From Bacillus multifaciens (GTDB lineage Bacteria > Bacillota > Bacilli > Bacillales > Bacillaceae_G), in the NCBI RefSeq assembly GCF_030756675.1, contig NZ_JAVBXD010000008.1, forward strand, positions 62,001 to 126,000: 64,000 bases of DNA. Reading direction: 5' to 3'. Position 1 is the first letter of the stretch. Each line of letters opens with the position of its first letter. The notes below the pieces were generated by a model. The model did no database searches and was not told the DNA's origin. It saw only the letters and a list, made by a program, of their open reading frames with translations. Of the stretch, positions 35,872-60,885 are shown in pieces. A program made the translations under genes and the position numbers.

Positions 35872-36248
<377 letters not shown>

Positions 36249-37085: not shown

Positions 37086-37148
37086 AGAAATTTTAGGCAC
37101 ATCAAATAGACGTTCAAGTACTTATCTTTTTTGAACGCTTGAACCTCC

Positions 37149-37277
37149 ATCTTCTCCCATCCAGACTGTACTGTCGGCTTTGGAATCGCACCAAATCCTG
37201 CCTTAACGGCTCGCGGGCTTAGAACAAACACATGTGTTCATCACCGCCGGTCGGGATTTTCACCCTGCCCCGAAGAT
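37149..37277 (-). ncRNA. FMN riboswitch (RFN element)
   Basis: Read on the minus strand: ATCTTCGGGGCAGGGTGAAA, TCCCGACCGGCGGTGATG, AGCCCGCGAGCC, GGCAGGATTTGGTGCGATTC, AAGCCGACAGTACAGTC, TGGATGGGAGAAGAT. All conserved RFN blocks are present and P1 closes ATCTTC with GAAGAT. It controls ribU through the terminator at 37052-37085. The remaining DNA between 37278 and 37643 is AT-rich with no gene seen. Confidence 0.95.
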
Positions 37278-37643
37278 AGACCGATATTCTATTTTCCTCA
37301 TCATTATACAACAACTTTAAAGCAATGTGAATGAAAATGCTTCTTTTTCACACTTTATAAAAACCTTCCCTTGTTTTTATCCTTATATTCGGTAACATGT
37401 TAGATACTCTTGCTCATCTAATTAGATGCATGTTTTTTTATTAATATCATGCTTATTAAACTTTATATAGTCAAATCTTCATGATTGCATGACATTCTAA
37501 CGACTAGTAAATAATATGACAAAAAAGAACATTTTTTCGTGTTTGGCCCTTAATGTTGGCAATTCCCTAGCCATTCATATGCGAAAGTGATAATATATGA
37601 TATTGTTAAGAAAACAGCATTTTCTTACAATGGAGGAAATGTC

Positions 37644-55581: not shown

Positions 55582-56289
55582 ATGAGTATTCATATCGGAG
55601 CAAAAGAAGGCGAAATTGCAGAATCTATTTTATTACCTGGGGATCCTTTACGTGCAAAATATATTGCAGAAAATTTCTTAGAAGATGTAACATGCTACAA
55701 CAATGTGCGCGGCATGCTAGGATTTACAGGAACATATAAAGGAAAACGTGTCTCTGTTCAAGGTACAGGTATGGGAGTTCCTTCTATTTCGATTTACGTA
55801 AACGAGCTAATCCAAAGCTATGGGGTAAAAAATTTAATCCGAGTTGGAACATGCGGTGCAATTCAAAAAGACGTTAAAGTACGTGATGTTATTATTGCAA
55901 TGACTGCTTGTACAGACTCTAACATCAATCGTTTAACATTCCCGGGATTTGATTTTGCCCCTTGTGCAAACTTTGATTTATTGAAGAAAGCATACGATGC
56001 TGGTATAGAAAAAGGGTTACACATCCGTGTTGGTAACGTCCTTACAGCCGACGTATTTTACCGTGAGAGCATGGATATGGTAAAAAAACTTGGAGAGTAC
56101 GGTGTATTAGCTGTTGAAATGGAAACAACTGCACTATATACATTAGCAGCAAAATACGGTGTAAATGCATTATCTGTCTTAACAGTAAGTGACCATATCT
56201 TTACTGGTGAAGAAACAACTGCTGAAGAACGTCAAACAACATTTAATGAAATGATTGAAATTGCATTAGATGCAGCAATCCAATCGTAA
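55582..56289 (+). CDS. deoD: Purine nucleoside phosphorylase, DeoD type
   Basis: A 235-aa hexameric-type phosphorylase that cleaves purine nucleosides with phosphate. Family motifs: [54 protein letters not shown] and [18 protein letters not shown] with the ribose-binding Glu, and [26 protein letters not shown]. Single-gene unit with its own terminator. Confidence 0.97.
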
Positions 56290-58278: not shown

Positions 58279-58384
58279 TTTGTCCGAATTTCACGAAAAG
58301 TTCACATGAAATTCACACACTTCCTTTACAGTAATAACTAGTTAATCCTTTCCTTAACACATATAAAAGAGGAGAGTGCGTGAA

Positions 58385-58915
58385 ATGAAACAAGTTGGAC
58401 AACCAATTCAAAACGAAAAACAATTAGAAAAAATCAAAGATATACTAATACAATCATCAAAACGTGATGCTTTATTATTCGTATTAGCTGTAAATTCAGG
58501 ATTAAAAGTAAGTGAAATATTACAGTTAAAAGTTGGCGATGTTATCGATGAAAATGAGCATGTTCGTCATTCTATTTTGTTCTATAATGACAAAATGAAA
58601 AAGCATAAATGGTTCGCTGTAAACGAAGAATTACAACATACGATTGAACAATATATGAAAGAACGAAAAGTATGGAAGCGTAATGAACCATTATTAAAAT
58701 CTCAAAAAGGAACAAAATCTATTACGAGACAACATGCTTGGTACATTTTAAACAAGGTGGCAAAAGAAGTTGGTTTAGAAGGGATTAGCTCGCATACACT
58801 TCGCAAAACATGGGGATATTGTGCTTATAAATCTGGCGTAGATATTGCTTTTTTACAACACTTTTTCGATCATAGTACCCCATCAAAAACTTTGAAATAC
58901 ATCGGTATTGCTTAA
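58385..58915 (+). CDS. Tyrosine recombinase catalytic domain, stand-alone
   Basis: A 176-aa protein with only the catalytic half of a phage-integrase-type recombinase; the N-terminal DNA-binding (SAM-like) domain is missing and nothing upstream encodes one. Box II HTLRKTWGYCAYKSGVD keeps His and Arg, FFDHST keeps the second His, and LKYIGIA keeps the Tyr. The first catalytic Arg, normally in a G-L-R-x-S-E motif, is Lys here (SGLKVSEILQL). ATG 58385 after GAGGAG. No attachment site or phage gene is visible nearby. Confidence 0.8.
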   Translation: MKQVGQPIQNEKQLEKIKDILIQSSKRDALLFVLAVNSGLKVSEILQLKVGDVIDENEHVRHSILFYNDKMKKHKWFAVNEELQHTIEQYMKERKVWKRNEPLLKSQKGTKSITRQHAWYILNKVAKEVGLEGISSHTLRKTWGYCAYKSGVDIAFLQHFFDHSTPSKTLKYIGIA

Positions 58916-59327: not shown

Positions 59328-59522
59328 ATGCACACATTAACAATTGAATTACCGAAAGAAACATTAGAAAAACTAAATTTATTGCAGCAAGCTTACAAAA
59401 AGAAAACAGGTGCTGTCGTTACTGAAAGTACCCTTATTCAGTCCCTTATTTCAAGAGAATTTATTCAAGAGGTTACACCATTTGATTTACAGCAATACGT
59501 ACAACAAAAAGAACAACAATAG
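59328..59522 (+). CDS. Small ribbon-helix-helix-like protein (64 aa)
   Basis: The protein opens with a beta-strand-like MHTLTIELPKETLEKLNLLQ and continues with two amphipathic helices (QQAYKKKTGAVVTESTLIQS, LISREFIQEV), the outline of an RHH DNA-binding protein or antitoxin-like protein. This is a shape-based guess. ATG 59328 lies behind GGGGGGAGAA. No toxin-like partner is adjacent. The gene has its own 21-bp-stem terminator. Confidence 0.6.
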   Translation: MHTLTIELPKETLEKLNLLQQAYKKKTGAVVTESTLIQSLISREFIQEVTPFDLQQYVQQKEQQ

Positions 59523-59527
59523 GTTTT

Positions 59528-59579
59528 AAATGACAGAAAAACTCTCACCTATCTTAAAGTGAGAGTTTTTCTGTCATTT
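59528..59579. terminator. Terminator after the RHH-like gene (21-bp perfect stem)
   Basis: AAATGACAGAAAAACTCTCAC and its exact complement with a ten-base loop; the inner GTGAGAG is followed by TTTTTCTG, so the core can terminate. Confidence 0.75.
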
Positions 59580-59651
59580 ATAGCAAGTCATCGCAAGCCT
59601 ACACAATCGATTACCAATCTAAATTTTTTTAAATAAAATCTAGAAAAATCA

Positions 59652-59680
59652 TTGACAATGATAATGATAACCATTATCAT
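59652..59680 (+). promoter_or_regulatory. Sigma-A promoter overlapped by a Fur box
   Basis: -35 TTGACA (59652-59657), 17-base spacer, -10 TATCAT (59675-59680). The Fur box GATAATGATAACCATTATC at 59660-59678 matches the 19-bp consensus GATAATGATAATCATTATC at 18 positions and covers the spacer and most of the -10, so Fur-Fe binding must block this promoter. Confidence 0.85.
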
Positions 59681-59686
59681 TTATTA

Positions 59687-59798
59687 TGAAGCCAACAATT
59701 GATGAATCAACCAAACGCTCAGTAACATTGTTACCCCTCTTTTTTCATAAAGAAAAACACTGTACATTCCCCCTGTTTGTACAGTGTTTTTCTTTTTA
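59687..59798 (+). ncRNA. fsrA: Fur-regulated small RNA, probably FsrA
   Basis: A Fur-box promoter points into a short gap between two convergent genes and the transcript would end at a strong terminator about 110 bases later, with no usable reading frame between. The RNA has an unpaired C-rich stretch TTACCCCTCTTTTTT (59731-59745) suited to pairing with Shine-Dalgarno sequences, and a second, TTCCCCCTG, in the terminator loop. This is the layout of FsrA, the iron-sparing sRNA of B. subtilis. Identity with FsrA is inferred from architecture, not from an alignment. Confidence 0.7.
59753..59797. terminator. Terminator of the Fur-regulated sRNA, shared with the DUF72 gene
   Basis: Perfect 14-bp stem AAAAACACTGTACA / TGTACAGTGTTTTT, loop TTCCCCCTGTT, followed by CTTTTTATTTT on the plus strand; also suited to end the convergent DUF72 transcript. 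Confidence 0.9.
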
Positions 59799-59827
59799 TT
59801 TTAACTAGTAATGAATGATATTTCACT

Positions 59828-60673
59828 TCACTCAAATAAATTTAGTTGTTCAGGCTTAGGTTCCCCGTACGTAATGCCAAGCATATCCATGAGTTGTTTC
59901 GCGTTATCTGCTGCATCTCCGCCAGAATTATTATTAAATAGAAGATAAACTTCTTTTGTTTTTGTTTTCAATTCTTCTATCCGTTCTACCCATTCTTTTA
60001 ATTCTTGTTTATTATAGCGATATAAACAGCGAACAGCCCGCCAGTTCTCTCCCTTATCCAGCCATCCGTGCACATTGCGACCATGAAATCGAACTAAAGT
60101 CATTTGTTCCTGTGTTGATTCTAATACAATTGGAATAGACCCTATTCCCGCTTGCGGTTCATCACAAATTGTATGAATCCACCCTTCTTGTTTCATAAAT
60201 TCCATCGTTCGATTGCGAAATTGTGGATAAAACCAAGTCTGATTCCGAAACTCTAATGAACATGGGATATCTGGCATTTTCTCTTTTGTATAACGTAATA
60301 AATCCACATTTTTCTTTTGACAATCAAACCAAGGTGGATACTGGAACAATACCATTTTTAGCTTATTGGCTTTTTGAAGAGGAGCGATTGACTCTTTAAA
60401 TGCGTGAAACATATCATCAATATTTGCAAATGGAATTTCTCCGCGCATATGCCCTGTCATTCCTTGATAAGCCTTTACAATAAATGAAAAGTTTGACGGT
60501 GTTTCTAAAACCCATTTCTCATAATTTCTCACAGGCTGCATAGCATAAAAAGAACTATCTACTTCTACAATTGGAAAATACTCGCTATATGTTTGCAGTT
60601 TATGCTTCATTTCATATGCATCTTTATATAAAGAATCGTGATCTCCCCATCCTGTTAACCCAATAGAAATCAT
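59828..60673 (-). CDS. DUF72 (YecE-like) protein
   Basis: A 281-aa TIM-barrel-like protein of the DUF72 family: MISIGLTGWGDHDSLYKDAY opening, then FPIVEVDSSFYAMQP, FIVKAYQGMTGHMRG, MVLFQYPPWFDC, SLEFRNQTWF and VYLLFNNNSGGDAADNAKQL. Its biochemical activity is not known to me. ATG at 60673 follows GGGGGGGCAG; 63 earlier in-frame codons run through a bcr1-like repeat and are spurious. Two tandem repeats fill its upstream region, so its promoter lies in or beyond them. Confidence 0.88.
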   Translation of the reverse strand: MISIGLTGWGDHDSLYKDAYEMKHKLQTYSEYFPIVEVDSSFYAMQPVRNYEKWVLETPSNFSFIVKAYQGMTGHMRGEIPFANIDDMFHAFKESIAPLQKANKLKMVLFQYPPWFDCQKKNVDLLRYTKEKMPDIPCSLEFRNQTWFYPQFRNRTMEFMKQEGWIHTICDEPQAGIGSIPIVLESTQEQMTLVRFHGRNVHGWLDKGENWRAVRCLYRYNKQELKEWVERIEELKTKTKEVYLLFNNNSGGDAADNAKQLMDMLGITYGEPKPEQLNLFE

Positions 60674-60683
60674 CTGCCCCCCC

Positions 60684-60853
60684 CTATCTCCAATCCATTC
60701 TAATTTTTCGACATATAGATCGCGCTCGCTTTCTCCCTTTGTTTTAAATCTAGCGCGTCGTAGGAAAAATCCCTGACCGTTTTTATGCACGGCCAGATGC
60801 ATTCGCCCACCGATAAAGAATGCTTTTCGGTTTTTTAATTTGGATTTATATAC
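60684..60853 (+). repeat. bcr1-like dispersed repeat, copy 7 (first of a tandem pair)
   Basis: CTATCTCCAATCCATTCTAA, CGACATATAGATCGCGCTCG, GGAAAAATCCCTGACCG, GCACGGCCAGATGCATTCGC, ending TTTTTTAATTTGGATTTATA. The central GCTATGCAG block is shortened to GCG. It begins 11 bases upstream of the DUF72 start codon. Confidence 0.8.
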
Positions 60854-60885
60854 ATCTAACAAACATCTTATAATATATAAATAAC

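What the first reader, a model, noticed from the sequence alone, without database searches (positions are those of the whole stretch)
59652..59798. Fur-box promoter driving a roughly 110-nt small RNA, probably the FsrA iron-sparing RNA
The gap between two convergent genes has a near-consensus sigma-A promoter whose spacer and -10 are covered by an 18/19 Fur box, followed about 110 bases later by a strong terminator, with no protein between. Since both neighbours point inward, the box cannot serve either gene. In B. subtilis Fur represses FsrA, which blocks translation of iron-rich enzymes under iron limitation. Seen: promoter, box, terminator, C-rich segment. Known: FsrA biology. Inferred: identity.
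Basis: partly seen in the sequence, partly recalled or inferred. Interest (0 to 1): 0.78.

Follow-up and report, generated by a model that had tools for sequence, protein, structure and literature searches.

The report
Fur-controlled iron-sparing small RNA
This stretch encodes a short regulatory RNA that a Bacillus-like bacterium probably switches on when iron runs out, to stop it making iron-rich enzymes; it seems to do the job of the known RNA FsrA but to belong to a different RNA family.

Summary
In detail: 59652-59797 holds an 11/12 sigma-A promoter, an 18/19 Fur box, a roughly 111-nt RNA with two C-runs and an intrinsic terminator, between convergent genes. The name FsrA is not supported: no Rfam FsrA hit at E<=10, 12 bits and rank 7 in the window with an FsrA model built here, transcript similarity mostly within shuffles. 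Only the promoter clearly matches fsrA. The RNA belongs to another family: a syntenic copy beside the same DUF72 gene occurs in 5 of 19 genomes of the family of G851, 2 of the 19 not judged. A model of those five, without the window, finds it as best window hit (72 bits). The most conserved part of the RNA is the C-rich terminator loop. In G612 it pairs best with Shine-Dalgarno regions that include the two targets named beforehand, sdhC and citB (ranks 3 and 4 of 1513 gene models), then Fe-S fumarase and an oxidase subunit III. Loop:citB pairing recurs in 5 of 5 genomes. Best reading: Fur-repressed iron-sparing sRNA, analogue of FsrA and IsrR. Nothing was tested in the window's own species.

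The parts
59652..59657 (+). -35 hexamer TTGACA
   Evidence: TTGACA, TTGACG or TTGGCA in the 5 syntenic relatives
59660..59678 (+). Fur box, 18 of 19 match to GATAATGATAATCATTATC (consensus recalled)
   Evidence: box of 18-20 of 21 at the same place in 5 relatives
59675..59680 (+). -10 hexamer TATCAT
59687..59797 (+). predicted small RNA (start inferred from the -10, end from the terminator)
   Evidence: leave-one-out model of 5 relatives finds 59713-59797 at 72.4 bits, best hit of the window
59733..59739 (+). first C-run ACCCCTC; a C-run of 4 or 5 is near this place in 4 of the 6 sequences (window, G873, G851, G872), none in G559 and G612
59749..59795 (+). terminator hairpin, 18-bp arms; some stem pairs change on both sides among relatives
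59767..59777 (+). C-rich terminator loop TTCCCCCTGTT, the most conserved part of the RNA and likely seed
59328..59522 (+). upstream neighbour, DUF3924 (64 aa); a protein alike by eye is at the same place in relative G873
59527..59580 (+). perfect 22-nt inverted repeat, likely terminator of the DUF3924 gene
59828..60862 (-). convergent neighbour, DUF72 gene (ORF as listed; the start with the best ribosome-binding site is 60673)
   Evidence: syntenic in 5 relatives
58376..58915 (+). phage-integrase-family gene; homologues (by eye in ORF lists) lie on the same side of the RNA in G559, G873 and G872

Best explanation
59687-59797 is a trans-acting small RNA gene repressed by Fur when iron is plentiful. 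On iron starvation Fur leaves the box, the RNA is made, and its C-runs, above all the conserved terminator loop (CAUUCCCCCUGUUUGU), pair with G-rich Shine-Dalgarno regions of mRNAs for iron-rich enzymes (aconitase citB; in some species succinate dehydrogenase sdhC; probably Fe-S fumarase and a terminal oxidase) and block translation, sparing iron. Shown by computation: promoter and box, RNA structure, conservation and synteny, complementarity in relatives. Inferred: Fur binding, transcription, translational block, and that the same targets hold in the window's species. It works like FsrA and IsrR but does not pass the test for membership of FsrA.
For: Promoter, box, terminator. Full-length homologue in G851 (query 5-158 of 166, 72%, E 8.7e-14). 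Syntenic copy with a Fur box facing DUF72 in 5 of 19 genomes of that family. Leave-one-out model: 72.4 bits, E 2.8e-12; next separate window place 20.6 bits. Five of 16 predicted stem pairs change on both sides in at least one sequence and stay paired, while the loop is nearly invariant. Targets in G612 (1.6 of 3.9 Mb, 1513 gene models): sdhC rank 3, citB rank 4, class I Fe-S fumarase 5, oxidase subunit III 6. The citB leader holds a 9-14 nt perfect complement of the species' own loop in 5 of 5 genomes; 0, 10, 8, 5 and 4 of 1513 background leaders score as well. The window's loop is identical to that of G873. Class and C-rich-to-SD mechanism: PMC9410917 and PMC8216469 (passages seen).
Against: No expression data. 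The window's own genome is not held, so no target could be read there. sdhC complementarity is strong only in G559 and G612; in G851 426 of 1513 background leaders pair as well with the loop. Ranks 1 and 2 in G612 are an acyl-CoA carboxyltransferase and a VirB4-like ATPase, with no evident iron link; ranks 7 and 9-11 gave no iron family either, rank 8 was not scanned. Any C-run prefers G-rich SDs: with CCCCCC kept and flanks shuffled, 3/40, 1/40, 1/40 and 14/40 controls rank sdhC, citB, fumarase and oxidase as high. An AT-rich control segment ranked citB 27th. The 12-nt pairing with sdhC in G612 uses CCAT, which the fold places in the terminator stem; the first C-run of G872 is predicted paired. 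The overall RNAalifold covariation term is unfavourable (+1.22). The family model R2 has a terminator-like background (up to 35.6 bits in G612). The window's ferredoxin leader ranked only 11th of 66 (8/200 shuffles as good).
Confidence: 0.82

Rival explanations
1. It is FsrA itself, a strongly diverged orthologue of the B. subtilis RNA that acts on the same kind of targets.
For: The four best matches of the window segment among 398 Bacilli are fsrA promoters (one search places coincide); both RNAs have ACCCCTC in a loose stretch and a C5 terminator loop, 35 versus 38-39 nt apart. A few of 18 trimmed-transcript tests are weakly above shuffles: G872 global 1/500 and local 16/500, G873 local 10 and 22/500, window global 16/500. 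G559 and G612 start with a small hairpin, as FsrA does.
Against: No Rfam RF02273 match at E<=10; 12.2 bits, rank 7, with model R1, and at most 8.9 bits at the RNA in the five relatives; the other transcript tests are within shuffles; family model R2 gives no FsrA locus above 17.4 bits; DUF72 is not near FsrA in 5 of 5 FsrA genomes.
Confidence: 0.14
2. The Fur box drives a Fur-regulated small RNA, but its main targets are not iron enzymes (for example other regulators, or antisense control of the DUF72 3' end).
For: The RNA runs towards the 3' end of DUF72 and shares its terminator; a Fur-repressed pseudo-tRNA RNA of B. cereus has a cymR homologue and sod as predicted targets (PMC3399842, passages seen).
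Against: The C-rich loop is what is conserved; distance from box to DUF72 stop varies from 105 to 180 nt in relatives; iron or respiratory enzymes fill ranks 3-6 of 1513.
Confidence: 0.12
3. A Fur-regulated leaderless peptide.
For: An ATG at 59686 opens 40 codons, and G873 shares its first bases and stays open to the terminator.
Against: No ribosome-binding site, reading runs through the terminator, no ATG at that place in G851, and G559 and G612 have only 70-71 nt.
Confidence: 0.02
4. Only a convergent-gene terminator beside a chance Fur box.
For: The terminator is T-rich on both strands.
Against: 18/19 box versus 14-15 in shuffles; box, RNA and loop conserved in synteny in 5 relatives.
Confidence: 0.01

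Closest known systems
FsrA (Rfam RF02273), Bacillus subtilis
   Same: Fur box over an almost identical sigma-A promoter (88% over 48 bases for G239), C-runs in a loose stretch and in the terminator loop; sdhC and citB are among its reported targets (PMC8216469, passages).
   Different: No covariance match of the transcript and little or no sequence similarity; other neighbours; 83 model positions against 111 nt; the strong 8-bp 5' hairpin of FsrA is missing in the window.
IsrR, Staphylococcus
   Same: Fur-repressed, C-rich regions, pairs with Shine-Dalgarno sequences of iron-sulphur enzyme mRNAs (PMC9410917, passages seen).
   Different: IsrR is 174 nt with two Fur boxes and three C-rich regions; [quoted passage not shown] I did not align IsrR.
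RyhB / PrrF
   Same: Same logic: Fur-repressed RNA lowering iron-using enzymes (PMC9410917, passages).
   Different: Gram-negative, Hfq-dependent (same passages). PrrF scores 20.5 bits on the window against a gathering score of 90.
Fur-regulated pseudo-tRNA RNA (tRNA-Other) of B. cereus ATCC 14579
   Same: Another Fur-repressed regulatory RNA in a Bacillus (PMC3399842, passages seen).
   Different: That one holds a tRNA-like element; the only Rfam hit of the window at gathering level is an FMN riboswitch elsewhere. Sequences not compared.

Membership tests
FsrA (RF02273) | Covariance score near or above the family's 80-bit gathering score | tested here: not met
   No match at E<=10 in 59600-59860; real FsrA 109-116 bits with RF02273; own model R1 12.2 bits
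FsrA (RF02273) | Fur box overlapping the promoter | tested here: met
FsrA (RF02273) | Transcript sequence homologous to B. subtilis-group FsrA | tested here: not met
   458/500 and 113/500 shuffles score as well; trimmed: 267, 203 and 16 of 500; a few weak excesses in relatives G872 and G873
FsrA (RF02273) | Same genomic neighbourhood | tested here: not met
   Window family lies beside DUF72; best DUF72 match is on another contig (G239, G069) or over 1.4 Mb away in contig coordinates (G163, G328, G015) from FsrA. Other neighbours were not compared
FsrA (RF02273) | Help from FbpA, FbpB, FbpC | not testable with these tools
   own genome not held
Fur-repressed iron-sparing sRNA (functional class) | Fur box in front of a noncoding transcript unit | tested here: met
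   by sequence only:
Fur-repressed iron-sparing sRNA (functional class) | Complementary to leaders of iron-enzyme mRNAs | tested here: met
   in relatives only: sdhC 3rd and citB 4th of 1513 in G612; citB in 5 of 5 genomes, sdhC strongly in 2 of 5
Fur-repressed iron-sparing sRNA (functional class) | Iron-responsive transcription and repression of targets in cells | not testable with these tools
   needs RNA and protein data
IsrR | Sequence homology to Staphylococcus IsrR | not tested
   IsrR sequence not fetched

The most novel reading that the evidence does not exclude
Iron-sparing RNAs in Bacillales turn over as a module: a nearly invariant Fur-box/sigma-A promoter is kept while the RNA body is replaced lineage by lineage (FsrA, this DUF72-linked family with its seed in the terminator loop, and at least two further Fur-box C-run RNAs without Rfam match seen here), each re-evolving C-runs against the same citB/sdhC leaders.
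Probability: 0.4. Interest if true: 0.72.

Novelty: new member of a known kind. Interest (0 to 1): 0.58.

Why it matters
It would supply a post-transcriptional arm of the iron response in a Bacillus group outside B. subtilis, with named targets and an exact seed, and a case for how iron-sparing RNAs are replaced between lineages while promoter and targets stay. It also shows that the label FsrA, carried over by resemblance of promoter and C-runs, does not pass a membership test.

Tried and rejected
FsrA by covariance model and by shuffled alignment: not supported. FsrA elsewhere in G612: best R1 hit 24.3 bits, E 0.022, in the 1.6 of 3.89 Mb read. A pattern built from both FsrA and the window (Fur box, CCCCT, CCCC) hit 7 of 398 genomes: the 5 FsrA genomes and 2 where a reading frame starts within 20 nt; it was designed after seeing both, so it is not independent evidence. 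Plasmid, phage and viral-contig searches for the locus found nothing. Searches with 24 kb of the window found one 58-bp match in two Proteus records (plasmids) and nothing (phages). Genome contigs held no close relative of the DUF72 protein (4 loci, best 63%), and the 398 Bacilli gave only promoter-length or shorter matches in the rows listed. A DNA search with G851's copy found G873 (full length) and G872 (terminator part) but not G559 or G612; those two were recognised by position, box and loop. Pairing with leaders of the window's own genes was not informative. The MAFFT alignment misplaces the stem of the short forms. Papers: the listings (several capped below the number of papers found) show no title or abstract start about this RNA or an FsrA homologue in the B. 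cereus group; I opened only the papers named in this report. PMC9938188 discusses B. subtilis FsrA by analogy (passages); PMC2742718 has no occurrence of FsrA or small RNA (find); PMC3987803 concerns plasmid sRNAs (passages); PMC12871923 states broad FsrA conservation, without a list in the passage seen. The founding FsrA paper was not held; FsrA biology beyond the cited passages is recalled.

Full report
1. What is there. Between the DUF3924 gene (59328-59522, +) and the convergent DUF72 gene (stop at 59828, -) lies TTGACA-17-TATCAT at 59652-59680 (11 of 12). A Fur box, 18 of 19, lies at 59660-59678; the next separate place in the window has 16 of 19, and 20 shuffles gave 14 or 15 at best. 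An 18-bp perfect terminator hairpin with a C-rich loop follows (59749-59795). The predicted 111-nt RNA folds far better than shuffles (z -6.2). A perfect inverted repeat after the DUF3924 gene (59527-59580) is probably that gene's terminator, so in the window the box sits in front of nothing but this RNA. The sRNA terminator is T-rich on both strands and probably serves DUF72 too.

2. Is it FsrA? Rfam's FsrA (RF02273, 83 positions, gathering 80 bits) is among the 4227 families scanned at E<=10 over 59600-59860; it gave no hit, while 21 other hits far below their gathering scores were listed. A model from five FsrA sequences (A1) scores the locus 12.2 bits, seventh of 45 hits in the window, and at most 8.9 bits at the RNA of the five relatives described below. 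Similarity of transcripts is not above shuffles (458/500 and 113/500 as good), whereas promoter plus transcript is (0/500 and 0/500). On trimmed transcripts, 18 tests (6 sequences, 3 scorings) gave mixed results: the window 267, 203 and 16 of 500; G872 171, 16 and 1; G873 10, 22 and 38; G851, G559 and G612 between 77 and 442. So a faint common architecture or very old kinship is not excluded, but membership is not met. The promoter does resemble fsrA: in 398 Bacilli genomes the four best matches of the window segment are the fsrA promoters of G239, G163, G328 and G015 (same places), and the fsrA promoter of the fifth FsrA genome, G069, matches too. Those five were the only ones of 398 over the FsrA cut-off. 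In all five the best DUF72 match lies on another contig or more than 1.4 Mb from FsrA in contig coordinates.

3. Its nearer relatives. In 397 genomes drawn from the order of G239, 119 matched, mostly through the Fur box only. One match ran almost full length (G851, query 5-158 of 166, 72%, E 8.7e-14) and one came in two adjoining pieces (G559). Both lie 3' of, and convergent with, a DUF72 gene homologous to the window's; read by eye, G559 also keeps the integrase-family gene and the histidine kinase. All 19 held genomes of that family have DUF72. In 5 (G851, G873, G872, G559, G612; DUF72 identity 65-74%, the highest of the 19) a Fur box of 18-20 of 21 faces DUF72, 105-180 nt from its stop. In 12 the best within 420 nt is 12-13 of 21. 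In 2 (G750, G683) my motif failed to find the gene end, so they are not judged. By eye G873 and G872 also keep the integrase gene, and G873 a DUF3924-like gene. In G873 and G872 a small gene lies divergently upstream of the RNA, so there the box could in principle serve two transcripts. I infer one small sRNA family kept by descent. A model built from the five relatives only (R3) finds 59713-59797 at 72.4 bits, E 2.8e-12; apart from the opposite strand of the same hairpin (32.3 bits) the next window place scores 20.6. The model that includes the window (R2) gives its own members 52-85 bits, by construction, and no FsrA locus above 17.4 bits. Its specificity is moderate: in 1.6 Mb of G612 the true locus is best (52.4 bits, E 2.3e-7), but other places reach 35.6 bits, E 0.001. 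None of the five relatives has an Rfam hit at gathering level.

4. What is conserved. Across six sequences: promoter and box; a terminator stem in which 5 of 16 predicted pairs change on both sides in at least one sequence and remain paired; and the loop CAUYCCCCCUGUUUG (one base shorter in its 3' part in G612). The RNAalifold covariation term as a whole is unfavourable (+1.22), which I put down to the bad alignment of the two short forms (70-71 nt), so I rest on the individual pairs. A first C-run is present in four and missing in G559 and G612; in G872 it is predicted paired. The loop is thus the likely seed. The RNA is probably not coding: lengths and frames differ, and the window's ATG at 59686 has a counterpart in G873 but not in G851.

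5. Targets. I named two FsrA targets beforehand, sdhC and citB; the sdhC leaders had been looked at before the citB search, the citB leaders not. In G612 I fetched 1.6 of 3.89 Mb, made 1513 gene models with a ribosome-binding site, and ranked the duplex energy of the 16-nt loop segment with each leader. sdhC is 3rd and citB 4th. Fifth is a class I Fe-S fumarase and sixth an oxidase subunit III (Pfam COX3; the NCBIfam QoxC score is below its cut-off). Ranks 1 and 2 are an acyl-CoA carboxyltransferase and a VirB4-like ATPase; ranks 7 and 9-11 showed no iron family, rank 8 was not scanned. By longest perfect complement sdhC has 12 nt, citB and fumarase 11, against 3-8 for 1,497 of 1513 models; 4 of the 12 sdhC-pairing bases lie in the predicted stem. 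Controls: with CCCCCC kept and flanks shuffled, 3/40 (sdhC), 1/40 (citB), 1/40 (fumarase) and 14/40 (oxidase) loops rank them as high; fully shuffled, 2, 0, 0 and 2 of 40. In G612 the window's loop ranks citB 10th and sdhC 14th; the window's first C-run 227th and 167th; FsrA's two C-run segments rank citB 498th and 230th, sdhC 38th and 233rd, the Rieske gene 7th and 229th; an AT-rich control ranks citB 27th and sdhC 465th. Across species, each genome's own loop pairs with its own citB leader by 14, 9, 11, 12 and 11 perfect base pairs (G851, G873, G872, G559, G612), and 0, 10, 8, 5 and 4 of 1513 G612 leaders do as well or better in energy. For sdhC the figures are 426, 110, 79, 5 and 3 with the loop, and 461, 62 and 214 with the first C-run in G851, G873 and G872. 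So citB is the robust target, and sdhC varies between species. The window's loop is identical to that of G873.

6. Mechanism and likelihood. Fur-repressed transcription (inferred from the box), release under iron starvation (inferred), and loop pairing over the citB and other Shine-Dalgarno regions with block of translation (inferred from complementarity in relatives; the mode is that reported for FsrA and IsrR, PMC8216469 and PMC9410917, passages seen). I put about 0.82 on this statement and more than 0.9 on a real Fur-box sRNA gene.

7. What is new. The kind is known (RyhB, PrrF, FsrA, IsrR). This RNA has no Rfam match at gathering level in the window or the five relatives, and no listing in the searches named under Tried and rejected shows it. 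PMC9410917 already argues that iron-sparing RNAs arose convergently (passage). The present case adds a lineage that keeps the fsrA-type promoter with a largely unrelated body. In the same survey two further Fur-box C-run RNAs without Rfam match turned up (see Noticed in passing), which makes a general turnover plausible.

8. Limits. The species was not told and its genome is not held. I take it, from recall of gene content and 33.5-37% GC, to be close to the Bacillus cereus group, but no call shows this. Target evidence comes from relatives. Gene models were mechanical, and starts were chosen by ribosome-binding site.

Noticed in passing
window 35881-35905 and 36000-36248 (+): The second-best Fur-like box of the window (16 of 19) overlaps a TTGACA-18-TATCAT promoter in front of an 82-aa ferredoxin-like gene (named by eye), odd for an iron protein if Fur acts there as a repressor.
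   Followed up: partly
L014, L104, L109, L130-L134, L138-L162: A different Fur-box RNA (TTTTCTCCAGAAGTT stem-loop, then ACCCCCCTC) with no Rfam hit at E<=0.5 in the three loci tested; 5 of 5 genomes in the genus of G061, and at least 46 of 151 in its family with matches of 100 nt or more, a second copy in at least six.
   Followed up: partly
L165, L172, L173, L184, L192 (G728, G791, G832, G683, G875): Another Fur-box transcript without an early reading frame, with an AATACnnnnnnACCC..TATTGAT stem-loop and TTCCCCA-CCC motifs; no Rfam hit at gathering level in the four loci tested, L165, L172, L173, L184. R2 gives L165 33.8 bits elsewhere in the locus, not examined.
   Followed up: no
window 37145-37281 (-): FMN riboswitch, 117 bits, the only Rfam hit of the window at gathering level.
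   Followed up: no
window 56213-56270: 58 bp inside the 3' end of a gene (55582-56289) 88% identical to two Proteus mirabilis records, the only near match of 24 kb of window in the plasmid collection.
   Followed up: no
window 58376-58915: Short phage-integrase-family gene kept beside this RNA in three relatives (by eye), so a resident gene and not a recent insertion.
   Followed up: partly
L189:1676-1894 and L190:1652-1876: In G873 and G872 a small divergent gene (72-74 aa, alike by eye) sits just upstream of the sRNA promoter; none like it is listed there in G559 or the window.
   Followed up: no
G612 gene models with GGGGGG before the start (41 of 1513): Besides sdhC, citB, fumarase and the oxidase subunit this list holds a Rieske Fe-S protein, hemA-like, pyruvate formate-lyase-like and isocitrate dehydrogenase-like genes, further candidate targets; it also holds ORFs that are probably spurious.
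   Followed up: partly
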